From positions 1 through 42,456 of the IMG/VR virus record IMGVR_UViG_3300009509_000043: a DNA stretch of 42,456 nt; one strand, 5' to 3'. The translations under genes and the position numbers were made by a program. Within the stretch, counting starts at the first letter, position 1. Each line of letters begins with the position of its first letter. The notes beneath the pieces were generated by a model, which searched no databases, was not told the origin of the DNA, and saw nothing but the letters and a program-made list of their open reading frames with translations. The DNA is from a virus. Below are positions 1 through 42,456 of the stretch, piece after piece.

Positions 1-120
1 AAATGGGGTTGGAATTATGCCATCAGCTACCCTGATAGCAGGATAATGCACGCGGAAACATGCCAGGACTATGTGGTTGCCCTGCGCGAAGGCAGAGACC
101 GAATCAAGTCGGTAGACTGA
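1..120 (+). CDS. 3' end of a small phage protein (partial, cut by the window edge)
   Basis: The first base begins an open frame that reads to TGA at 118-120. Its 39 residues are identical to the C-terminus of the 99-residue protein at 41607-41906 except for one Gly-to-Ser change (SYPDG against SYPDS). It is the same gene met a second time on a second haplotype. The function is unknown. The protein is short and rich in aromatic residues and shows no signal peptide or membrane segment in the visible part. Confidence 0.85.
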   Translation, partial: KWGWNYAISYPDSRIMHAETCQDYVVALREGRDRIKSVD

Positions 121-132
121 AAGGAGAAGAGT

Positions 133-4967: not shown

Positions 4968-5800
4968 TCATTCTTGGAAGTAAGCCGCTACAAGATCCTG
5001 GGCCTCACTCTGCATTTGCCCGCTAGCTATCCCATAGCGCAAAAATGTGCTAAGTGATTGCCAGCCAGCTATTTGCATAACCACAGCTGGCTGCACACCA
5101 GCGTCGATCGAAAGCTGGGCAAATACTCGGCGAAGATCATGTGGACGTAGATTTGGAGCCCCAGCGCCATTCACTGCTCTTTGCCACACCCCACGAAAGG
5201 TAGAAATAGCCCGACCGCGGCGGTGAAATACGTAATCCCCATTTCTCCTCATCCATCGGCGTTCTAAAACCCGCCGAGAAGCTCCACCAAGCCGTACATA
5301 CCGGATCTTGAGGTTCTTGCTTTTGTTCTGTGGGAGCTGTACTGATTCGCGATCAGTCGACACATCCCTCCACTCGAGCTTCCTGCTTTCTCCCTGTCTC
5401 CAGCCCATCAACAGCAGCCAGGAAACGAGATCGCAGATATCTTGGTCAAGAACCTCGAGAGCAGCAAGGATCTTCTTCGCTTGTCTCGGCGTGCAGGTAA
5501 CCGTACGGATATTGCAGACTCGGGGGAATCGTATCCTCGGTATATTGCGGACCAAGCCGAAGTCCTTAGCCAGGGAGAACCCCCTACGGAGAATAGAGAG
5601 CTCGTTCCGTAGAGTTGCTGGCGCGATACCTTCTGCCAGCCTCTGAGCCTTGTAACGCTCGATATCAGCCACCGTACGCGGTAGGTGCTCAAATAGTCTC
5701 ACCAACGCCCGAGAATGGCAAATAGCGGATTTTAGACTCCGCTTCTCTTCTGCCCTGTAGTCGTCGATCACCAGCCCGATCAGCTCTTGAGTCGTCATGG
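4968..5800 (-). CDS. int: Tyrosine recombinase (phage integrase)
   Basis: The 276-residue protein has an N-terminal core-binding domain (about 1-95) and a C-terminal catalytic domain. The active site is complete: Arg134 (MGWRQGES), a Lys at 161-164 (NKSKNLK), His220-x-x-Arg223 (PHDLRR), Trp246 in the His/Trp position (GWQSLS) and the nucleophile Tyr255 (FLRYG). It cuts and rejoins attP and attB to insert or excise the prophage. The ATG at 5800 is preferred to a GTG at 5816 because AAGGGG lies seven bases before it. The N-terminal arm-binding domain is short or absent. The 84-base gap upstream contains TTGCTGTTT twice, possibly accessory sites. Confidence 0.95.
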
Positions 5801-5884
5801 CGGTCCCCTTAACCACCGACCACCGTTGCTGTTTATTGCTGGTTAACTATCCTCTTTGCTGTTTGAGGCCGATTCAAGCTTTTT

Positions 5885-6876: not shown

Positions 6877-7147
6877 GTGACGCACGACATGTTCTAGTCA
6901 CGACCGAATATCGTGGCGTGTTTATGGGCAAGTTGGTCGAGGATTGCGGGACTAAGGTAACGCTCGAGGACGCCCAAATGTGTATATATTGGGATTCATC
7001 CACGCACGGGGTGTTTGGGCTTGCGGCGGTGGGGCCTGGAGAGCGCTGCAAAATAGGCCATCTGGTGCCTGGTCGTACTACGCTCCGAAAAGTCACGTGC
7101 ATATGCGACGTGACCGCCGAAGCGGTGGAGCGGTGGAGATCCCAACC

Positions 7148-7157
<10 letters not shown>
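6873..7157 (+). CDS. DUF6948-like phage protein (94 aa)
   Basis: The start at 6873 overlaps the previous stop (ATGA) with GGAGG ~8 bases upstream. The protein contains VTTEYRGVFMGKL, a 'VTLEDAQMCIYW' segment and THGVFGLAAVGP, a pattern I recognise from the phage-encoded DUF6948 family ('T-T-E-x-R-G-V-F-x-G ... C-x-Y-W ... G-V-x-G-L-A-x-x-G-P'). It is a small beta-barrel-like fold of unknown role, usually located beside other small early genes. The end reads into a TPEAV-like helix (VTAEAVERW), also typical. Confidence 0.75.
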
Positions 7158-7811
<654 letters not shown>

Positions 7812-10673: not shown

Positions 10674-11222
10674 ATGAGTCTAATAGATTATTTGGAATCC
10701 GCATTCGAGGCAGTCTCGATTTCGGCGCTGCAGGCATTCCATTCCGGGTGCCAGAAGGCCGTCAAAGAGCTCGAGCCCAAAGTCGACGAGATAATCAAGG
10801 AATACGAGGACGTAATGAACCTCGCTAATGTCGTCGAAAGAGCTATCTCAGCAAAGAAGGCGGAGAACGAACAAAGGGCAAAAGACGCAGATGACAAAAC
10901 CGATTGGGGCGAGGTGTTGCGATTTTGGAATGCCCTAGCAGGCAAACAGGGACTTGTGGTGATCGACAGGATGTCTCCGGCGCGCAAGAAGGCATGGGCC
11001 GCGATGGAAAAAATGTATCCCGATTTCCGGGAACTCCTCACCGATGCAGTATGTAATAAACGAGGAAAGTGGTATCAGGAAAGACAGATGCCATCGTTTA
11101 AACAGGCGACCAACAAAGAGAAGTTTCTGGAGCTCAAAGAAGGCGGTTGGAATAGAAACGACCCGGGAGAGAAAGGAAACAAGGCCGAGCGAGTCTCAAG
11201 CTTTATAGGGACCACGGAATAA
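10674..11222 (+). CDS. Replication-protein C-terminal-domain-like protein (182 aa)
   Basis: The ATG at 10674 is chosen over upstream TTG/GTG codons lying in the terminator tail. Residues ~10-75 are long charged helices (coiled-coil-like). Residues ~85-160 follow the pattern of the C-terminal domain of many phage replication initiators and helicase-loading organisers: a 'FWNAL' motif, VIDRMSPARKKAW, 'YPDFRELL', then a W-rich segment ending 'N-K-E-K-F-L-E-L-K-E-G'. The N-terminal DNA-binding domain of those initiators is missing. A replisome-organising role is inferred. Its stop overlaps the beginning of a degenerate repeat array. Confidence 0.6.
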   Translation: MSLIDYLESAFEAVSISALQAFHSGCQKAVKELEPKVDEIIKEYEDVMNLANVVERAISAKKAENEQRAKDADDKTDWGEVLRFWNALAGKQGLVVIDRMSPARKKAWAAMEKMYPDFRELLTDAVCNKRGKWYQERQMPSFKQATNKEKFLELKEGGWNRNDPGEKGNKAERVSSFIGTTE

Positions 11223-11232
11223 TGGTTGATAA

Positions 11233-11516
11233 AAAAGACGACTGGGCCTGGCCTGGCGTGGTAATGCAAGGTCTGGCGCGGTTTGCCAAGCCATGGCAAG
11301 CGATGGCCCTCATCGGCGTGGCGTGGAATGGTTTTGCCCGGCATGGCACGGCAAGACATGGCTGGGATTTGTGGGACCAGACAAGACGGCTGGGCAAGCC
11401 TATGCCTGGCTTGGTCTGGTACGGTTCGGCCGAGCAAAGAATGGCTAGGTTCCGGCTAGGCTCGGCGCGGCATGGGTCTGCCGGGTAAGGCGCGGTACGG
11501 CTAGGCAAGACAAGGC
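11233..11516 (+). repeat. Degenerate pentanucleotide array 1 (NNGGC), about 56 units
   Basis: From 11233 the sequence can be cut into five-base units of the form NNGGC (tgggc ctggc ctggc gtggt ...), with one phase slip near 11390 and increasing decay in places. Period five is incompatible with a conserved reading frame. The array ends ...aaggcattttt, 11 bases before the AGGAGG of the gene at 11537. A second array with the same unit and the same ending lies at 12263-12508. Confidence 0.85.
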
Positions 11517-11536
11517 ATTTTTCATAGGAGGATACG

Positions 11537-12232
11537 ATGCCAAGGACAACGACGAAGAAACCCGTGAACCTCTCGATGGTGAAAAACGTGAGAGACCAAG
11601 CGGTGGCGAGACCAAGCTCGAAAACCCCGCCAAAGGACGGGACAAAGAAAAGCCAAGCGGAGACTGTTGTTATCCCGCGCATGGATCTTAAAATGGTCAC
11701 ACTGAAGTTCTCTGGGGAAAATCTCCTCGTCAACAGGTTTAGTCCAAGAGCAGTTGCCGAGATGGAGGGGAGAAAAGAGCACAAAGCCTCGGCGGGAAAA
11801 GAGGCTAAAAACCCGCAGAGGGACTACGAGGAGAGCATATATCGAGATGGCGAAGGGAATTATCTATTCCCGGCAAATGCTTTCCGAAAGTCAGCCATTG
11901 CAGCATGCACCAGTCTTGGGAAGGGGACTATTACCAAGGTGCTTGCCAGACAAAGCCATCGCATCCTGGACGACATGGCTATCCTTGAAGGCGAACCAAT
12001 CATGGATGCCAGGATAGTGAGGATTAACGGGAAGACCCCCGATATGAGGTACCGGGGTCTTTTCAAGGAATGGTCGACCACACTGACGATCGAGTACAAT
12101 GCCAGGGCAATTAGCCTGGAAAACCTGATTAACCTTTACAGTGTCGCCGGTTTTGCTGTCGGCGTTGGGGAATTCAGGATGGAAAACGGCGGCCCTGGAA
12201 CATTCGGTTGTTTCACGGTGGGCGCTTCTTGA
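11537..12232 (+). CDS. Phage protein of unknown function, array-associated paralogue A (231 aa)
   Basis: ATG 11537 has AGGAGG seven bases upstream. The first 45 residues are Lys/Thr-rich and disordered. Then come IPRMDLKMVTLKFSGENLLV, NRFSPRAV, a Lys-rich loop, 'RDYEESIY', FPANAFRKSAIAAC and a C-terminal beta-rich part ending GTFGCFTV. I recognise the family from phage recombination/replication modules, where it has no assigned function; the predicted look is a beta-rich fold with a basic loop. A shorter relative follows at 12520. Both are preceded by NNGGC arrays, so gene and array appear to duplicate as a unit. Confidence 0.75.
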   Translation: MPRTTTKKPVNLSMVKNVRDQAVARPSSKTPPKDGTKKSQAETVVIPRMDLKMVTLKFSGENLLVNRFSPRAVAEMEGRKEHKASAGKEAKNPQRDYEESIYRDGEGNYLFPANAFRKSAIAACTSLGKGTITKVLARQSHRILDDMAILEGEPIMDARIVRINGKTPDMRYRGLFKEWSTTLTIEYNARAISLENLINLYSVAGFAVGVGEFRMENGGPGTFGCFTVGAS

Positions 12233-12262
12233 GATGAGAAAACAAAGACAAGACATCCCCAG

Positions 12263-12508
12263 GTTTGGCTCGCTACGACGAAGCATGCCTCGGTTGGGTA
12301 AGGTCCGGCGCTGCTGCCCGTGGGTTGGCCCGACTTGGGATGTCTTGCCTTTTAAGTTGTGGAACCAATTTCTAAAGGCAAGGCACTGCAATGCAAGGCA
12401 AGGCATGCCGCAGCTGGGCGCGACAGGGCTGGGTGTGCCACGGCAAGGCGTGGTTGGGCCGGGCATAGCATGTCTGGGTACGGCTCTCCACCACAAGGCA
12501 AGGTTTTT
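12263..12508 (+). repeat. Degenerate pentanucleotide array 2 (NNGGC)
   Basis: The five-base NNGGC pattern runs from about 12263 to 12350, is interrupted by ~25 bases of unrelated sequence (about 12351-12375), and resumes (aaggc aaggc actgc aatgc aaggc ...) to 12508. It ends ...aaggcaaggttttt directly before AGGAG and the ATG at 12520. The array fills the whole gap between paralogue A and its short relative. Confidence 0.85.
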
Positions 12509-12519
12509 AGGAGTAAACA

Positions 12520-12837
12520 ATGCGCAAGACGATGAGCTATAAGATCGACGAGGTTGCTGTGCCGATAGAAGAGTTTGTTATTCCGAGAGTAGACATTAGA
12601 AGGGTTGTGCTACGCCTTGTTGGCGAAAATCTTCTGTACCACTGGCATGTGGGCAGGGAAATTTGCCCACATTGTGGCAACATTTCAGCATGCGACCGCA
12701 GCAAAAGGAGGGATATAGAATACGAAAAGAGTCTATCATGGATACCAAGGAACAAAGACGGCAAATGCCTAATGCCAGCAGAGTTTTTCAGGAAAAGTGC
12801 GATCGAAGCCGCGTCTCTGTTAAAAAGCGGGGGGTGA
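12520..12837 (+). CDS. Short paralogue B of the 11537 gene (105 aa; truncated relative)
   Basis: ATG 12520 has AGGAG nine bases upstream. It aligns with the N-terminal half of paralogue A: VIPRVDIRRVVLRLVGENLL, a 'YEKSL' segment, and MPAEFFRKSAIEA. It stops where A goes on for about 100 more residues. In place of A's NRFSPRAV loop it carries HVGREICPHCGNISAC, a possible zinc-binding insertion. The next gene starts three bases after the stop, so the truncation is either stable and functional or an old deletion. A start at 12532 is also possible. Confidence 0.65.
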   Translation: MRKTMSYKIDEVAVPIEEFVIPRVDIRRVVLRLVGENLLYHWHVGREICPHCGNISACDRSKRRDIEYEKSLSWIPRNKDGKCLMPAEFFRKSAIEAASLLKSGG

Positions 12838-12839
12838 AG

Positions 12840-13130
12840 ATGCAGCATATAAGGTGGACCTCAAAAGTTCCAAGGCAAACATGCCTGACTAGGGCTATTT
12901 TCGATCTCGCCCGAGTAATGCAAGACCTCGACACAGTCTTCGAGAAGGGGCACCCATTCTACAAGGAACACGTTTCCAAGGAGATGGCCTCAGCGTACGA
13001 CAAAAAACAGTTTTTGAGGTTATACCGGACCTTGCAAGATTTACGTAACAACGTACTGGAGAAAACAGTTGGTAAAAACTCCGAAGAACTTTCCAAGTTG
13101 ACAGCCGAACTGAGAATACGATTAATATGA
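12840..13130 (+). CDS. Small hypothetical helical protein (96 aa)
   Basis: ATG 12840 follows the paralogue B stop by two bases, with a GGGGTG box just upstream. The protein is basic and helical (LTRAIFDLARVMQDLDTVFE, then LYRTLQDLRNNVLEK). I see no enzymatic motif. Its stop overlaps the next start (ATGA). The frame extends far upstream through paralogue B, but that stretch has no ribosome-binding site and unlikely composition. Confidence 0.6.
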   Translation: MQHIRWTSKVPRQTCLTRAIFDLARVMQDLDTVFEKGHPFYKEHVSKEMASAYDKKQFLRLYRTLQDLRNNVLEKTVGKNSEELSKLTAELRIRLI

Positions 13131-13681
13131 GAAAACAATACTCATGGGCAGAGGGAGTGAGGTTCAAGTCAGATCCTGCCGCGGTTAGCAAACGGATAGC
13201 TAAACTGGCTAAGGCTGGGCCTGTTACACCAGATGCGTTCATAGAAGATGCGAAAAATCCAAAATCTCCGCAACACATTGATTTCCAGTGGGATGTCAAT
13301 GAGGCGGCAATGGAGCACTGGAGGTACACGGCACGGAACATGATTCGCTCGATCCGTGTAATAACGGAAGAGGCCCCGGACGCAATACCGCGAAGACTTT
13401 ACATCCATGTTTCAGACGAGATCGGTGGTGCTGGATATCTTTCTTCTGAGCTTGTAATGTCTAGGGCTGATCTGCGGCAACAGGCTCTTGACCAAGCCTT
13501 CTCGTTGCTTGAAGGTGTCCAGCGACGATTCAATGAACTCCAAGAACTCTCCGGAGTTTTCCAGGCTATCGAAGAGGCTAAACGGGCGAGGGGGAAAAAC
13601 CCCCGAAAAGGACCACCAAAAAGGCCGAGAGGCGGCAGCCCAAGACGGAAGGTTGCTGATTATGCTACCGCAGTCCCTTAG
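13127..13681 (+). CDS. Phage protein of the replication module, unknown function (184 aa)
   Basis: It contains VTPDAFIEDAKNPKSPQHID and 'F-x-W-D-x-x-x-A-A', which I recognise from a common phage family with 'A-K-N-P-x-S-P-L-H' and 'F-E-W-D' motifs found beside recombination and replication genes. A middle helix pair is followed by RADLRQQALDQAFSLLE and a long C-terminal helix. The last 40 residues are Lys/Arg/Pro/Gly-rich and probably bind nucleic acid. It overlaps the DnaC-like gene by 20 bases, so the two are translationally linked. Confidence 0.7.
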   Translation: MRKQYSWAEGVRFKSDPAAVSKRIAKLAKAGPVTPDAFIEDAKNPKSPQHIDFQWDVNEAAMEHWRYTARNMIRSIRVITEEAPDAIPRRLYIHVSDEIGGAGYLSSELVMSRADLRQQALDQAFSLLEGVQRRFNELQELSGVFQAIEEAKRARGKNPRKGPPKRPRGGSPRRKVADYATAVP

Positions 13682-30230: not shown

Positions 30231-31229
30231 TCAATGGTGCATGTAATGGTACATGGCTATCGGGATATCCAACCCGCCACCAACGCCGACATATTCGTCA
30301 AAACCAATATCGCATGTTGTCCCGCTGCGGGAATCTCCTTCAAAATCGAGAGTTGGTACGCTCGCGTCAGATGCTGGGCCGACACCGGCATCAATGGCGT
30401 TGCAGCCAGACTTCAGAGTAAAATCATCGGCACCAACATTGTTGAAAATGGCGCTGTCTGTTTGGGAGTGAAGGGAATTCCCACCAGGAGCCGATGTGTC
30501 TCCTGACAAGTTGTAGTCGCTACCAGCTGCCCACGTTCCGCCATCGGTATCGAAATCATCTTCGGATGAAGCAGCCGAAGCAAAACCGATACAATTGACA
30601 ACCTTTACCTGCCCGTTGGCTTTATGCCGAGCCCAACCCGCATCTGCATAGTCGGCTGTGTTATAATTATGTCCAGTACAGTTGTAGCATGTCACCATTA
30701 GTGCGGCGGTTGTAGACGCCAGACCAATGGGTGCTCGGTCAATATCGTAAAAAAGAGAATTTTGGACTGTGTGGCCGTCAGAACTAGTTTGGATATAAAT
30801 GCCCCAAAGGCTGTCATAAATAACGCACGTATCGATCAAACAGTAGTCGCAAGTAGAGTCAAACTCAATCGCAATATCAGCCGTCGAGCGAAACTGCATG
30901 CCAATGACTTGCGTATAATCCTCATAAATCAAAATCGCTGGGCTTGATGTCTCATCAATATTGAAATAATCTGTATCCCAAACTCCTTGATGGCGGTAAG
31001 TTTGTGCCGTGTTAGTCCAAATTTTGATATAACGTGTGGAATCTGTAGTCCATCCGTTGATTGTGACTGTACTGTCAGAACCGCCGCTCGTATTGCGGCA
31101 ATCGGCAACAGCTATCTCATTGGCATCTGGTAAGTTTTTCTGCTCGCCTGTGTTCCACGAATCAAGATCGACATAATCATGCCCACCACCAGCGTCGACA
31201 TCGATAATGGATATAGATTCAGTTGCCAT
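30231..31229 (-). CDS. Right-handed beta-helix spike protein (332 aa)
   Basis: The body consists of short repeating strands of the parallel beta-helix type (SPAILIYEDYTQVIGMQF, IEFDSTCDYCLIDTCVIYDS, GHTVQNSLFYDIDRAPIG). It ends with TCDIGFDEY, a signature common at the end of secreted beta-helix (pectate-lyase-like) domains. The fold is typical of tailspikes that bind or cut surface polysaccharide; no catalytic residues can be assigned. It is the most likely receptor-binding protein of the phage. A 72-base gap precedes it. Confidence 0.75.
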   Translation of the reverse strand: MATESISIIDVDAGGGHDYVDLDSWNTGEQKNLPDANEIAVADCRNTSGGSDSTVTINGWTTDSTRYIKIWTNTAQTYRHQGVWDTDYFNIDETSSPAILIYEDYTQVIGMQFRSTADIAIEFDSTCDYCLIDTCVIYDSLWGIYIQTSSDGHTVQNSLFYDIDRAPIGLASTTAALMVTCYNCTGHNYNTADYADAGWARHKANGQVKVVNCIGFASAASSEDDFDTDGGTWAAGSDYNLSGDTSAPGGNSLHSQTDSAIFNNVGADDFTLKSGCNAIDAGVGPASDASVPTLDFEGDSRSGTTCDIGFDEYVGVGGGLDIPIAMYHYMHH

Positions 31230-35039: not shown

Positions 35040-37142
35040 TTACGGTGACATAGTTGGTTGTTGTTTAGGCATTCGGCCCATATTGCCGCCAGGACCGGCT
35101 TGGGGCTGTTCACCTGGTGCTTGGAGTTGACGCAGTGGTTTCGGTGCCGGAGCTCCTCCCTGGGGTTGTGGGGCCGGTGCGGGAGGCCCTCCCTGGCCCA
35201 TACCAAACGGCATGGGAGGCGGAACGGTAGGGAACCCAAGAGCCTGCATTGCCCATGAAACCTGCGGATTCATGAGCGCCTGGAAATGCTGGCCAATATG
35301 GGAGTAAACAGAGGCAGAAAGCTGGGGATCTCCACGGGCAGCAGGTGAAGCCAGAAGAGCTGCATGTTCCTTGATGTCGAGCACATGGTTATCCGTCCAC
35401 ATGTCGACTCTGGCCGGGAGACCCTTGGAAAGCTGCTCGTTCTCCTCATGAATCCTTGTGAGCTGGGCCTCGTCGGACTGGAGAAGCGGGTCAAGCTGCC
35501 CGGAACGGACAACGGTGAGGAACTCCTGCGGGACGGAGATCATGCCGCGTGAAAGGAGCTGCTCTGCAAGCCACATTTTGCCGGAAATCGTGTCCGTGAT
35601 GGGGTTGGACACGTCGACAATAATGCGGTCAATGCCGAGTAGGTCGTTTCTGGTGTAGTAGCCGACCTCTGTGCGGTTACGCTCGCCGGCAATGGAGATC
35701 ATGCGTTCCTGGTCGCCGTCGATCATGTCGCGACAAGTCCGCACGATGAACGTGCCGGTATCCTCGAGGGCCATGGCATAGCTCTCCTTTAGCGGAGAGG
35801 CGCTTTGTGCGGCCTTGGCGTCCATGACCTTTAAGGCCTCACCAGACTTGAAGTTAGATTCTGTCTGGCCTCTGGCGACGGAGTTGATGCCGCTCTCTCT
35901 CTCCATGGCCCGGAGGAGGAAATTAGAGAAACGCTCGTGGTCGGGGGAATTAGCTTGGAGCGATATCCCCTGGGGAGGTACTTGCCCACCCTCGAGAAGG
36001 AAGACGCCGTCTCCCATGAAGTCTTCGTTGAGATTGCACCCCGTAGGAGCCCATATGATCGAGTTTCCGGCGCCCATATGGTTTGAGGCAATCATGGAGA
36101 CTTCTGCGTTGAGAAGTTCCTGGGGGGCAGCGAGATCGTTAGCCGGCGAGTACCCAAGCTGGGTCATGAGAACTTCCCCAGGGACAATTCTCGTCACCGG
36201 GATACGTTCAAATGGAAGGTCTTGGGGATCAGAGACAGGGGTATCTGCGTCTATGAAGCGAAACCACCGACCGCTTTCACATGCATTGTTTCGGAGATGA
36301 TAGAAGTTCCAAACCCCGACAATGTCAGTAAAATCATCGCTTGAGAGATCGCCTGAACCGAAATACCCCATGTTGAAGAGCGTGATATCCTCTTCATTGT
36401 TGGTAGATGCGTCGACAATGGCCTGAGCGATATCATTGTCGTCTTGGCGAGCTGCAAGCTCGAAGCGGTTCTCATATGAGCGAGTAAGAAGCCAGTCGTT
36501 TCGTTTCCATTCCTTGACGCCGAGGTCGAAGACAATGTCAAAGATCGTAGGGTTAGCAAACTCGAAATCGCCCTGGGGAACTATCTCGAGTTTCTCTTGC
36601 CCTAACTCGTCGAGAACCACCTCACCGTCACGTCCGAGTAACGGGACAGCCTCTTGCTCACCACCCCATGGGTCCCAAGGGTGGTGGATATAGCCGGAAG
36701 TCATAACCAAAGCATGCTTGACGGCACGCTTCAACGCCTCTTCGAGCCCTCGTTCTCGCCGGTAGTGGTCGACTACATGTTGGGCGACCTTGGCCTGCTC
36801 GAAACTTCGAGCGTCGTTTTGTTTGGCACGGGCTTCGAACGAGAGACGCTGCTGGCAGACGATCGTGTAAATATGATCGATTATAGATCTATATTCGTTC
36901 ACGGCCGCCACAAGCATGCTGTCGGTTATCTGCCTAACGGCCGTGAAGTCGAAGTCGGCACCACCATCGAAATAGCAGTTGTGATAGTAGAGCCAGTTAC
37001 GAGCAACAACCCGCCAGAAGTGTCCTGCCCTAATGCATTGGAAGTGACGGTCTATTCGTTCCTGACAGTGCCCCGCAAGAACAAGGGGGTCCTCTTCATT
37101 TGCCCAGTACTCTATTTCTGGGCGTCTCTTTCTTCTTTTCAA
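35040..37142 (-). CDS. Portal protein (podovirus/P22-like type, 700 aa)
   Basis: The length and composition match large podovirus-type portals. It has NEYRSIIDHIYTIVCQQRLS, 'F-x-x-x-A-x-x-N-D-A-R-S-F-E-Q-A', then MTSGYIHHPWDPWGG, RSYENRFELAAR, and ANSPDHERFSNFLLRAMERE with a C-terminal Pro/Gln-rich tail. It forms the dodecameric DNA gate between capsid and adaptor. The only in-frame start is TTG at 37142; the best Shine-Dalgarno (GGAGG) instead suits ATG 37149 in another frame, which encodes a 17-residue peptide. Confidence 0.85.
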   Translation of the reverse strand: MKRRKRRPEIEYWANEEDPLVLAGHCQERIDRHFQCIRAGHFWRVVARNWLYYHNCYFDGGADFDFTAVRQITDSMLVAAVNEYRSIIDHIYTIVCQQRLSFEARAKQNDARSFEQAKVAQHVVDHYRRERGLEEALKRAVKHALVMTSGYIHHPWDPWGGEQEAVPLLGRDGEVVLDELGQEKLEIVPQGDFEFANPTIFDIVFDLGVKEWKRNDWLLTRSYENRFELAARQDDNDIAQAIVDASTNNEEDITLFNMGYFGSGDLSSDDFTDIVGVWNFYHLRNNACESGRWFRFIDADTPVSDPQDLPFERIPVTRIVPGEVLMTQLGYSPANDLAAPQELLNAEVSMIASNHMGAGNSIIWAPTGCNLNEDFMGDGVFLLEGGQVPPQGISLQANSPDHERFSNFLLRAMERESGINSVARGQTESNFKSGEALKVMDAKAAQSASPLKESYAMALEDTGTFIVRTCRDMIDGDQERMISIAGERNRTEVGYYTRNDLLGIDRIIVDVSNPITDTISGKMWLAEQLLSRGMISVPQEFLTVVRSGQLDPLLQSDEAQLTRIHEENEQLSKGLPARVDMWTDNHVLDIKEHAALLASPAARGDPQLSASVYSHIGQHFQALMNPQVSWAMQALGFPTVPPPMPFGMGQGGPPAPAPQPQGGAPAPKPLRQLQAPGEQPQAGPGGNMGRMPKQQPTMSP

Positions 37143-37731: not shown

Positions 37732-37991
37732 GGTAGTGCCGCTTCAAGGACCAATTCATTGGCGGGGACGGCTTGTATGAAGTAATCCTTAGTATAAAGT
37801 TGACGGTAATAGTCGCGCCTTTTCTTTGTTTTGAGCTTTGGGTGGGACCTTGCCACTAGACTATCAACGTAGTCTTTAATAAACGCCTTGGCTTTTCTTT
37901 CGCTAAGAGAGATGAAACAGATAGAATTGCTGCTTGGATACTCATCATAGTTGTCACGAAAAACAATGAACAATAGACGTTGTTTTGTCAT
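37728..37991 (-). CDS. Small hypothetical protein after terL (87 aa)
   Basis: The start overlaps the terminase stop (ATGA). It opens LLFIVFRDNYDEYPSSNSIC, followed by a long basic helix (SERKAKAFIKDYVDSLVARS, then KTKKRRDYYRQLYT) and AVPANELVLEAALP. The layout resembles the following 58-residue gene (strand-rich start, then a basic helix), so the two may be related. Function is unknown. Confidence 0.6.
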   Translation of the reverse strand: MTKQRLLFIVFRDNYDEYPSSNSICFISLSERKAKAFIKDYVDSLVARSHPKLKTKKRRDYYRQLYTKDYFIQAVPANELVLEAALP

Positions 37992-39484
37992 TTGGAAAAC
38001 GCCCTGACAAGAGGGTTCCTCTTTCTTTTCCGCTTGTTCAACTTGGGTCGCTCGGAATGATGGAACTTGTTTCTCGGGAGAATCTTGTCTGGAAACGGGT
38101 TGTCAGACCAACGAGCCTGCCGGTTTGCATACTGAAGCGCCTTTATCCCGTCGCAATGGCCAAGAGCCTCAGATCTAACGAATTCGCTGCGCTTGTCATT
38201 ATATATGCCGTTGTCTAGCTGATAAATCAGTTGCTTGCAGCGAGGGTGTACAATGATCTTGTGCTCTTGGATATTGCGCCGAAGTGACGCAAGAGAAGCC
38301 TCGGCGTCATGCTTTATTGCAGGCTCTACCTTGAATCCGAAATCTACCGGGAATGACTGGATAGAGATCATTTGAGAGTCAGCAATGCGTCTTAGCTTCG
38401 AGATATGCGCTACTTCGTTATGGTCCCATAGCTCCGGCTCCTTCTGGCGATGAAGGTCAACAAGCTGCCCTTGGGTTGTGTAGTTCACCCAGATTTCGTC
38501 TTCGACCACAAGCTTCTGAGCTTCGAAGTCTACATAGAAAAGGAGTGAATGGGTCTTGTCCCTCCAGCCAATATCCATAGACACCATGGGATAGAAATAA
38601 GACGGCCGAGTCCACTCACGTATCAGAGAATCCCTTGCTGCTAACCACTCTGGGACGATCATGGACTCGGGGTCTGTAATGTGCTCTATCTCGGCCTCTC
38701 TTCTCCACGCCACAGTGTCCTTAGAGCCGCAGACGAGGAGGACGAGACGTTCATCCTCTTTGGTGAAATCGGGGTTCTGGGAGGCTTTGATCCCGAAATA
38801 CCTGTCAGCTGCCTTTGCCTCCGGTATGTACTTCGTTATTAACGGATGATCCATAGAACGCGGCGGGGTGGACATAAGGCATAGGAAGGGTTTATGCCTT
38901 TTAGCGAATTGCCAAACGACGATCTCGTTTATCACGCGCTCGAGTTCGTTGACGTAGCCGGCCTCGTCGATGACACACATGTCACAACCACCGCCGCGAA
39001 TAGCGTCAGGGTTCGGGTTGACGCCGTATATTTCTAGTACGGAATCAAGAGCGTCAGAGGGCCAATTCGGGTTCCGAAAGACGTAAGAGAACCGACTCTG
39101 CCTCGGACGGAGAGCGCTTGGACAACTTGACAGGACACGCTCCATGTTGGGTCTGACGATTGGATGGGCTTGTTCTCTAGTTGGTGCAAGGAAAAGGATG
39201 CGCTGGCCAGGTGTCGATATACAGCGTTTGGCGGCCCACATAAGGAAGAAATGCGACTTCCCAAAGCGCCTATGGGTCTCAATAACAAATGGTTCTGGAG
39301 TCGGGTCTCTCTCGTGACGCTCTTCAATGAAGTCCCATACCCAAAGCTGTCCATTTGGACGTAGCTGACCACGCTGATCACCTCTGTACCAACATGAATC
39401 GCGGTAGGCCTTACGAAACGCCGGGTCTCGCATGGCTTCCTGGAATTGTGGTATGGTGAGGATCTGGGACGTCATGTCTTGCAA
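37988..39484 (-). CDS. terL: Terminase large subunit
   Basis: This is a 498-residue two-domain packaging motor. The ATPase domain has a Walker A-like ETHRRFGKSHF (residues ~69-79, the Arg-x-Gly-Lys-Ser terminase form), Walker B CDMCVIDEAGY (~167-177) and motif III LMSTPP (~203-208). The nuclease domain begins near residue 300 with SMDIGWRDK, where Asp304 is the first metal ligand. It cuts concatemeric DNA and drives it into proheads. The start may be ATG 39484 or 39475; both overlap the end of the upstream regulator gene. No TerS is recognised beside it. Confidence 0.93.
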   Translation of the reverse strand: MQDMTSQILTIPQFQEAMRDPAFRKAYRDSCWYRGDQRGQLRPNGQLWVWDFIEERHERDPTPEPFVIETHRRFGKSHFFLMWAAKRCISTPGQRILFLAPTREQAHPIVRPNMERVLSSCPSALRPRQSRFSYVFRNPNWPSDALDSVLEIYGVNPNPDAIRGGGCDMCVIDEAGYVNELERVINEIVVWQFAKRHKPFLCLMSTPPRSMDHPLITKYIPEAKAADRYFGIKASQNPDFTKEDERLVLLVCGSKDTVAWRREAEIEHITDPESMIVPEWLAARDSLIREWTRPSYFYPMVSMDIGWRDKTHSLLFYVDFEAQKLVVEDEIWVNYTTQGQLVDLHRQKEPELWDHNEVAHISKLRRIADSQMISIQSFPVDFGFKVEPAIKHDAEASLASLRRNIQEHKIIVHPRCKQLIYQLDNGIYNDKRSEFVRSEALGHCDGIKALQYANRQARWSDNPFPDKILPRNKFHHSERPKLNKRKRKRNPLVRAFSK

Positions 39485-40053
39485 TACTGTGGGAGTACTG
39501 TTGCCGCACAGCTTCTTAACTTGCGCTCTGCGCGGAGAATAATCTGACGAGCGCGTTCTCTGGTGACGAAAAGGGCTTTTCCTATATCTGCAAGTGTGTA
39601 GTTCTTGTGATCATATGGGGGTAGGGAATAATGCATTTGTAAGGCGAGCTTCTGTCTTGGTGGCAATTTGTCGAGGAGCTTTGACGCGGCTTCCTTGCTG
39701 TCAATCTTGTTGTCGAGATCTTCAACAAAGTCGGTAGATTCTAAAAATTTCTGCCTCTGAATAGTCTCGAGGAGCACCTGCTCTGGTATTTCTGTAACTT
39801 TAGCAAGGTAGTTTGGGACTTTAACACCATTAAGAGCTTCCGGGAGAATTGATTCGAGTTTAAGATCTAGGTGGGCTGCGACCCTAACAATTGAAGCAAA
39901 TGAAATACGCCTGAAGTCTAAACACTCGAGCTGAGAAATAACACATGGGGATACGTTCGCTGCTTCAGCGAGCTCCTTTTGTGTTAGGCCGGCCTTCTCT
40001 CTGGCCGACTTGAGTGCATGATTCTTAAGGCGTATCTCGGCCCGGATCTTCAT
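39472..40053 (-). CDS. XRE helix-turn-helix / sigma-region-4 fusion regulator (193 aa)
   Basis: Residues 13-67 form an XRE-type helix-turn-helix (SAREKAGLTQKELAEAANVS, then SQLECLD). Residues ~127-180 match region 4 of primary sigma factors: LPPRQKLALQMHY, then YTLADIGKALFVTRERARQI and a final ILRAERKLR, which normally contacts the -35 element and the RNA polymerase flap. Sigma regions 2 and 3 are missing. Such a protein could bind its own operator through XRE and contact polymerase through region 4, activating or redirecting transcription. It lies just ahead of terL, so late-gene control is plausible. A terminase-small role cannot be excluded. Confidence 0.7.
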   Translation of the reverse strand: MKIRAEIRLKNHALKSAREKAGLTQKELAEAANVSPCVISQLECLDFRRISFASIVRVAAHLDLKLESILPEALNGVKVPNYLAKVTEIPEQVLLETIQRQKFLESTDFVEDLDNKIDSKEAASKLLDKLPPRQKLALQMHYSLPPYDHKNYTLADIGKALFVTRERARQIILRAERKLRSCAATVLPQYCKT

Positions 40054-41606: not shown

Positions 41607-41906
41607 ATGGACAAAAAATGCACCGAGTTATGCGGCGTTCCAATACCCGTATTTTGGCAACAAACGGGGAAGAGCCTTACCGAGGCCAAGGGAAGGACAG
41701 TGGAAGCGATGGTTAACGCCTTGGACGTGGGGTTCAACCCGGCCATCTTCCTTATCGACGGGCACCTCCTTTTTATCTTTCGGAACAAATGGGGTTGGAA
41801 TTATGCCATCAGCTACCCTGATGGCAGGATAATGCACGCGGAAACATGCCAGGACTATGTGGTTGCCCTGCGCGAAGGCAGAGACCGAATCAAGTCGGTA
41901 GACTGA
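41607..41906 (+). CDS. Small hypothetical protein, first gene of the accessory cassette (99 aa)
   Basis: ATG 41607 has AAAGGAG eight bases upstream. It opens MDKKCTELCGVPIPVFWQQT with two Cys, has a central GFNPAIFLIDGHLLFIFRNK (hydrophobic but too short for a membrane span) and ends REGRDRIKSVD. Its last 39 codons also occur at 1-120 with one change. Function is unknown. It is plus-strand between minus-strand blocks, typical of a moron or accessory gene with its own control. Confidence 0.7.
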   Translation: MDKKCTELCGVPIPVFWQQTGKSLTEAKGRTVEAMVNALDVGFNPAIFLIDGHLLFIFRNKWGWNYAISYPDGRIMHAETCQDYVVALREGRDRIKSVD

Positions 41907-41918
41907 AAGGAGCCAGTG

Positions 41919-42287
41919 ATGAGCAGTTGGGACATAGACAAAGTCAATCTTGTTTTCTTTGGCCTTGTTGGCCCTGTCGTGAAAGCCACATCCAAAAATG
42001 GATGTCCCATGTCGGTATCCGGAATCTCGCTGCCATGCACGGCAAGCGGTCTCAAGGAACTTTCGGGCCGGTACCCAGTTACTAGCCAAACTCCGATTTT
42101 GGACAAACGCACACCCTTGGAATCCGACTGGGGCTTGGCTGTTCGCGGCCCGATTCTTTCCCAGGCTCCACGGTCGTTCAAGGGCTACGGATACGCTGGA
42201 GTCGACGAGTACCTGTCCTGGTGGATCGACCACGGAGCCAGAGTCGGCTACTTGTCCGAAGACAAGGGCAAGATAAACTGGAAGTAG
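41919..42287 (+). CDS. Hypothetical protein, alternative cassette gene (123 aa)
   Basis: ATG 41919 has AGGAG six bases upstream (the same site that serves the 133-333 gene in the other haplotype). The protein has DKVNLVFFGLVGPVVKATSK, CPMSVSGISLPC with two Cys, TPLESDWGLAVRGPIL and a C-terminal 'Y-L-S-W-W-I-D-H-G-A-R-V-G-Y-L'. It shares no sequence with the 66-residue gene it replaces. The role is unknown. The variable position between conserved flanks suggests diversifying selection, for example against host defence or for host range. Confidence 0.65.
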   Translation: MSSWDIDKVNLVFFGLVGPVVKATSKNGCPMSVSGISLPCTASGLKELSGRYPVTSQTPILDKRTPLESDWGLAVRGPILSQAPRSFKGYGYAGVDEYLSWWIDHGARVGYLSEDKGKINWK

Positions 42288-42288
42288 C

Positions 42289-42456
42289 CTACCCCTCATG
42301 GTACTTCCTCAATTCTTCAGCCCCGATATCCTCGGGGCTTTTTTCATGGCCCCTGAGCTCGATTACGACCGTCTGTTCTGGTTCGTCGAGGATTCCTCGT
42401 TTCACCTTCTCTATGTCAAACCAGAGTTTCCCAGAGGCCACAAAGGCCTTCCAGAT
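42289..42456 (-). CDS. 3' end of the 335-706 homologue (partial, cut by the window edge)
   Basis: It is the second copy of the last 56 codons of the gene at 335-706. The stop is TAG (42289-42291) where the left copy has TGA, and the final residues YHEG are the same. It continues beyond the window and corresponds to position 502 of the left copy. A frame-preserving difference in the stop codon supports two real haplotypes rather than an assembly error. Confidence 0.85.
   Translation of the reverse strand: MWKAFVASGKLWFDIEKVKRGILDEPEQTVVIELRGHEKSPEDIGAEELRKYHEG
42319..42344 (+). terminator. Rho-independent terminator (right copy)
   Basis: It is identical in sequence to 365-390: stem agccccga/tcggggct followed by six T. 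It ends transcription of the alternative cassette gene inside the coding end of the convergent minus-strand gene. Confidence 0.8.

What the first reader, a model, noticed from the sequence alone, without database searches (positions are those of the whole stretch)
11233..12508. Two degenerate pentanucleotide (NNGGC) arrays, each just upstream of a member of the same gene family
Arrays of five-base units with constant GGC and two free bases fill 11233-11516 and 12263-12508. Each ends in AAGGC(A..)TTTTT and then the Shine-Dalgarno site of paralogue A (11537) or B (12520). Period five cannot be maintained by protein coding, the units are decayed but in register, and one array has a phase slip, so DNA-level amplification or an RNA/DNA function is implied. 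A duplicated array-plus-gene unit suggests the gene product acts on its own upstream repeat, for example binding the DNA or the leader RNA. I know of no named element of this type.
Basis: partly seen in the sequence, partly recalled or inferred. Interest (0 to 1): 0.85.

Follow-up and report, generated by a model that had tools for sequence, protein, structure and literature searches.

The report
Phage VIPR guide arrays beside vipr
The two odd five-base repeat arrays are guide-RNA genes of VIPR, a recently described CRISPR-like weapon that phages use against each other, and the neighbouring gene encodes its RNA-binding protein, so this is a new but somewhat eroded member of a known system.

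Summary
In detail: two degenerate NNGGY arrays (11242-11516; 12262-12503), lag-5 identity 0.49 and 0.44 against shuffle means of 0.27 and 0.26. The link to the 231-aa gene is general. Of 88 strong NNGGC arrays found in viral contigs by DNA pattern alone, 76 have a homologue within 1.5 kb, nearly always on the same strand. In the other direction, all 5 cultivated-phage homologues inspected and 12 of 15 in bacterial genomes have arrays, against 0 of 44 control loci. The protein family (phrog_4652) matches the solved SUSP1 Vipr protein (PDB 36pp, E 2.6e-40) and its model has a Cas7/Csm3 RAMP fold. This is a VIPR locus (preprint PMC13142463): arrays encode vrRNAs, GGY is the protein-bound scaffold, and the NN pairs are read on target DNA with a 1-nt skip. 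It falls in a Vipr clade whose partner gene is phrog_15946 (13127-13681), apart from SUSP1. What sets it apart: the lowest GGY adherence of 99 loci, no AGGC junctions, a long branch, and a truncated second vipr with its own array. It may be eroding. No target was convincingly found.

The parts
11242..11516 (+). Array 1: about 55 NNGGY units upstream of vipr, in three registers; putative vrRNA blocks 11245-11387 (28 units, perhaps two guides), 11388-11452 (13 units) and 11454-11516 (12 units)
   Evidence: array model and unit list; shuffles; block boundaries are inferred from the phase shifts
11537..12232 (+). Gene A, 231 aa: Vipr protein (RAMP family, phrog_4652)
   Evidence: PDB 36pp, family profile E 2.6e-40; fold; keeps 14 of 16 strongly conserved columns
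12262..12345 (+). Array 2, first block: about 16 weakly conserved units
   Evidence: model score 6.2, same register as the second block
12244..12352 (+). 19-nt inverted repeat (arms 12244-12262 and 12334-12352, 89% complementary) bracketing the first block of array 2; role unknown
   Evidence: RNA fold z -2.6
12377..12503 (+). Array 2, second block: 25 NNGGY units in one register, ending next to the ribosome-binding site of gene B
   Evidence: model score 34.9
12520..12837 (+). Gene B, 105 aa: truncated vipr paralogue (N-terminal half only, no G-loop)
   Evidence: 42% identical to A over residues 42-130; profile positions 2-89 of 188
13127..13681 (+). Gene D, 184 aa, phrog_15946: candidate vipr-accessory protein (vap) of this clade
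   Evidence: found beside vipr in 28 of the array-selected viral loci (a 29th, L070, has D and arrays but no vipr in the piece held) and in the Mycobacterium, Gordonia and cyanophage homologues; presence clustered on the Vipr tree; model without significant PDB match

Best explanation
This is a VIPR locus of a temperate phage. The arrays are transcribed into vrRNAs of roughly 12-14 NNGGY units each. Vipr subunits (gene A) assemble on the RNA, holding the GGY parts and exposing the NN pairs. The NN series pairs with double-stranded DNA of a competing phage or prophage, reading two bases and skipping one, and the bound complex blocks transcription there, probably helped by the accessory protein D. 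Shown here: the arrays, the Vipr homology and fold, the general array-vipr association, and the clade with D. Taken from the preprint on SUSP1 and P. fulva: vrRNA expression, co-purification, the 1-nt skip rule and repression. Inferred: that this copy works the same way; whether it is still active is open, because its arrays are the most eroded of those sampled.
For: PDB 36pp 'SUSP1 Vipr protein' matched by the family profile at E 2.6e-40. Fold search of the model ranks Csm3/Cas7 RAMPs first. 76 of 88 strong arrays have vipr within 1.5 kb; same strand in 81 of 83 loci; median gap 9 bases. Protein-first: 5 of 5 cultivated-phage regions and 12 of 15 bacterial-genome loci carry arrays, 0 of 44 controls do. 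Positive control: the GGY form of the model finds in SUSP1 one array upstream and three downstream, as published (PMC13142463). Units keep GGY while NN is near maximal entropy (1.85 and 1.94 bits).
Against: The window has the lowest GGY fraction of 99 loci (0.594, median 0.915), lacks the GGC|AGGC junctions of its clade, shows no clear 3' tail, and gave no convincing target. RNA expression and binding were not testable here.
Confidence: 0.94

Rival explanations
1. A VIPR locus in decay: the family assignment holds, but guides, second vipr copy and perhaps the whole system no longer function and drift neutrally. (This competes with the claim of activity, not with the family assignment.)
For: Lowest GGY adherence of 99 loci; long branch of A, 1.23 changes per column against a median of 0.46; B is half a gene; junctions missing.
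Against: A has an open frame, 14 of 16 strongly conserved columns and a confident RAMP model; array registers are kept over up to 28 units.
Confidence: 0.45
2. One reading: the protein binds the repeat in its own leader RNA or DNA and regulates its own gene; no foreign target is involved.
For: Arrays sit directly upstream of A and B, and RAMP proteins bind RNA.
Against: In relatives the arrays also lie after the genes, and can exceed 1 kb; the NN hypervariability needs an explanation; for two VIPR systems the preprint shows reprogrammable DNA targeting (PMC13142463).
Confidence: 0.04
3. A microsatellite expanded by slippage, without function, next to the gene by chance or common descent.
For: High-G+C bacterial genomes contain NNGGC runs with no vipr gene in the stretch held.
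Against: Same-strand adjacency to one gene family across very diverse phages, none in 44 controls; slippage gives identical copies, not a constant GGY with free NN.
Confidence: 0.01
4. The arrays are coding sequence for a low-complexity protein.
For: An 88-aa open frame overlaps array 1 (11222-11488).
Against: Period five does not keep a codon frame; the arrays hold TA units that make TAG stops; frames shift freely between loci.
Confidence: 0.01

Closest known systems
VIPR (Viral Interference Programmable Repeat), preprint PMC13142463 / doi 10.64898/2026.04.26.720920; characterised members: Escherichia phage SUSP1 and a Pseudomonas fulva prophage (type II)
   Same: Vipr RAMP protein next to intergenic GGY/NN arrays, phage-borne, with one small accessory gene
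   Different: GGC rather than SUSP1's mostly GGT; no SUSP1-like tail seen after the arrays; accessory gene D has no detectable similarity to the gene after vipr in SUSP1; a second, truncated vipr; low GGY adherence
VIPR loci of Gordonia phages Pipp and ODay, Mycobacterium phage Quico and cyanophage Cy-LDV1 (identified here; their genes are annotated as hypothetical proteins)
   Same: Vipr, D and arrays together; same part of the Vipr tree
   Different: Their arrays carry regular GGC|AGGC junctions; the window's do not
Class 1 CRISPR RAMPs (Csm3/Cas7)
   Same: Fold of the model: Csm3 chains lead the PDB ranking; sequence-unrelated at about 10-13% identity
   Different: No repeat-spacer array and no cas genes recognised among the proteins scanned; 5-nt instead of 6-nt RNA register

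Membership tests
VIPR | Vipr protein: RAMP homologue with RRM core, G-loop and thumb | tested here: met
   Family profile matches SUSP1 Vipr at E 2.6e-40; the model matches Csm3/Cas7; glycine positions of the C-terminal loop retained. The thumb was not examined separately.
VIPR | Tandem GGY/NN pentanucleotide arrays flanking vipr | tested here: met
   adherence is low, 59% exact GGY
VIPR | vrRNA variable regions of 9-16 repeats | tested here: inconclusive
   Runs between phase shifts are 28, 13 and 12 units in array 1 and about 16 and 25 in array 2; true RNA ends unknown
VIPR | Invariable structured 3' tail after the repeat tract | tested here: inconclusive
   No SUSP1-like tail; the arrays end next to a ribosome-binding site. 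An inverted repeat brackets one block
VIPR | Small accessory gene (vap) beside vipr | tested here: met
   D, phrog_15946, is phylogenetically clustered with this Vipr clade; whether it is one of vap1-6 could not be checked
VIPR | vrRNA expressed and bound by Vipr | not testable with these tools
   Needs RNA sequencing and pull-down
VIPR | Targets on foreign DNA read with a 1-nt skip | tested here: inconclusive
   One 23-of-24 match (L255), not in wobble register; the other cores at chance
Class 1 CRISPR-Cas | CRISPR repeat-spacer array and further cas genes | tested here: not met
   No repeat-spacer array in the tandem-repeat scan; no cas gene among the neighbouring proteins scanned

The most novel reading that the evidence does not exclude
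The truncated second Vipr (B) with its own array is a working, specialised half-RAMP, for example a cap or regulator of the A filament, and the locus uses a looser code than strict GGY. This would be a two-Vipr variant not mentioned in the main text of the preprint.
Probability: 0.08. Interest if true: 0.55.

Novelty: new member of a known kind. Interest (0 to 1): 0.4.

Why it matters
VIPR is proposed in the preprint as the ancestor of CRISPR RAMPs and reads DNA with a noncontiguous code. This locus, and the dozens fetched with it, are an independent, sequence-only confirmation that NNGGY arrays and Vipr belong together across phages of many hosts, including mycobacteriophages, Gordonia phages and Pseudomonas phage LESphi2. 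The eroded arrays and the half-gene here offer a view of how such a locus ages.

Tried and rejected
Single-protein searches of viral contigs with A and with the 308-aa gene found no close relatives; the diverse alignment A1 could not be used for that search. Diversity-generating mutation of an AAGGC template was considered early and dropped once the Vipr match appeared; a TRAP-like ring (also about 5-nt spacing, from memory) was dropped for the same reason. Coding function dropped: TAG units lie within the arrays. Target search: five 8-unit guide cores (one each from blocks 11454, 11388 and 11245, two from block 12377) gave 8, 5, 22, 7 and 2 contigs; agreement outside the core is at chance except in L255 (7 of 8), where the skipped base falls on codon position 2, not on the wobble base, and the flank is A-rich, so it is only a lead. 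Guide windows from all arrays against all fetched sequence showed no excess at any skip length (only the first 700 of 1147 windows were run, on about 2.5 Mb). Rfam: nothing relevant near the window arrays and no match in 19 relatives. D shows no similarity to the gene after vipr in SUSP1 or LESphi2 (against single sequences, so weak). The array scan of bacterial genomes was dominated by high-G+C runs without vipr and is of little use for the association.

Full report
OBSERVATION. The window is a 42,456-base virus record. It encodes a tyrosine integrase (4968-5816, PF00589, E 2.9e-18), so the phage is probably temperate; terminase and portal genes are recognised at 37988-39484 and 35040-37142. 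The two arrays are real: lag-5 identity 0.49 and 0.44 against shuffle means of 0.27 and 0.26, with none of 2000 shuffles reaching either value; a register-aware model scores 77.5 and 34.9 against at most 2.1 in shuffles of the whole window. The constant triplet is GGY with mostly C. Array 1 has two register shifts, array 2 none.

THE LINK TO THE GENE, TESTED BOTH WAYS. A profile grown from the 231-aa protein finds family members in 83 of these 120 loci and in the window. Among 88 loci with strong arrays, 76 have the gene within 1.5 kb; the nearest array is on the gene's strand in 81 of 83 loci; the median gap is 9 bases; several of the 12 misses have the array at a contig edge. In the other direction, protein similarity alone found homologues in Gordonia, Mycobacterium, cyanobacterial and Pseudomonas phages; all five regions inspected contain arrays. 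Of 15 full-length homologues in 398 bacterial genomes (drawn from the phylum of a Pseudomonas genome), 12 have arrays above threshold and the other three a weak one at a shared position; 44 control viral loci (377 kb) have none.

IDENTITY. All 69 aligned members match phrog_4652, function unknown; Pfam and NCBIfam give only isolated weak hits for the family and PADLOC none for the window's proteins A, B and D. The family profile matches PDB 36pp chain D, 'SUSP1 Vipr protein', at E 2.6e-40 over nearly the whole length. The AlphaFold model of the window protein (pLDDT 87) finds Csm3 and other Cas7-type RAMPs at the top of the PDB ranking. The preprint PMC13142463 describes VIPR: Vipr, an ancestral RAMP; vrRNAs of 9-16 YNNGG repeats plus a tail; recognition of double-stranded DNA by the NN bases with one skipped base; repression of competing phages; accessory vap genes; seven types. 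As a positive control, the GGY version of my array model recovers in phage SUSP1 one array upstream and three downstream of vipr, which is what the preprint reports from small-RNA sequencing.

WHERE THIS LOCUS SITS. In a quick tree of 107 Vipr proteins the window groups with loci that also carry D (phrog_15946, 13127-13681); presence of D needs 6 changes on the tree against about 30 for shuffled labels. SUSP1 and LESphi2 lie in another part. In these loci arrays stand upstream of vipr, between vipr and D, or after D; L297 has array-vipr-array-D, the window's order without B. Arrays of loci with D are cut into runs of mostly 7-13 units by a 4-base junction GGC|AGGC, seen 140 times; these may be the staggered arrays of the preprint, but its supplement could not be read. 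The window's array 1 shows runs of 13 and 12 units after its first and second shifts, but no such junction.

HOW IT DIFFERS. Only 59% of the window's units are exact GGY, the lowest of 99 loci (median 91.5%). The branch of A is long. B is half a vipr with its own array. The first block of array 2 is weak and bracketed by a 19-nt inverted repeat. These point to an eroding system, although A keeps 14 of 16 strongly conserved columns and an open frame. I put about 0.45 on erosion or loss of function, within the 0.94 for VIPR membership.

MECHANISM. Inferred from the published system: transcription of the arrays on the gene strand, Vipr assembly on the RNA, and binding of foreign DNA through the NN bases. 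The clade's D would take the role of a vap; its model shows no significant PDB match, so its activity is open. None of these steps was measured for this locus.

TARGETS. Under the 1-nt skip rule no self-target stands out. Five 8-unit guide cores were searched in viral contigs. Only the last guide of array 1 gave more than chance: 23 of 24 bases in L255, in a 207-aa gene. The skipped bases fall on codon position 2 and the flank is A-rich, so this remains a lead.

VERDICT. The system is already described in a 2026 preprint. The window is a new, rather eroded member.

Noticed in passing
window 7374-7693: Hexanucleotide array (period 6, about 54 copies, 87% matches) inside an open frame (6980-7720) that would encode GYGYGDGHG repeats; lag-6 identity 0.88.
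   Followed up: no
window 1-126 / 41787-41912 and 330-502 / 42284-42456: The contig ends repeat each other at 98-99% identity in two pieces with different offsets, as if terminally redundant or circular with a length variant between the copies.
   Followed up: no
window 12244-12262 / 12334-12352: 19-nt inverted repeat around the first block of array 2; the right arm can also pair with 12374-12385 at the start of the second block.
   Followed up: partly
window 39472-40053: A 193-aa protein joins an N-terminal helix-turn-helix to a sigma-70 region 4 domain (PF01381, PF04545).
   Followed up: no
L126 4591-4895 (Pseudomonas phage LESphi2): Three NNGGC blocks of 55-67 bases, 61-62 bases apart, upstream of vipr; by eye each is followed by short hairpins with differing stems (GCTGC/GCAGC, GCTG/CAGC, GCTGGA/TCCAGC). 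VIPR is thus present in the LESB58 phage.
   Followed up: partly
L058 2079 and L022 1663 (3' flanks of arrays): Shared tail GAACCTGGGYACGTTCG-AAACTGCCCA after arrays of two relatives; by eye GAAC/GTTC and TGGG/CCCA could form a pseudoknot.
   Followed up: no
L062 10563-10898; L078 3093-3437 and 3928-4310: Strong NNGGC arrays with no vipr homologue found within 1.5 kb; candidates for orphan vrRNA arrays.
   Followed up: no
L222 319-4355: A bacterial contig with two vipr genes of different clades, one array and D, so two-vipr loci are not unique to the window.
   Followed up: no
window 30305-30328: A 20-of-24 contiguous (0-skip) match to twelve NN pairs of the second array block; about 0.05 by chance after multiple testing (my estimate) and against the published skip rule.
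   Followed up: partly
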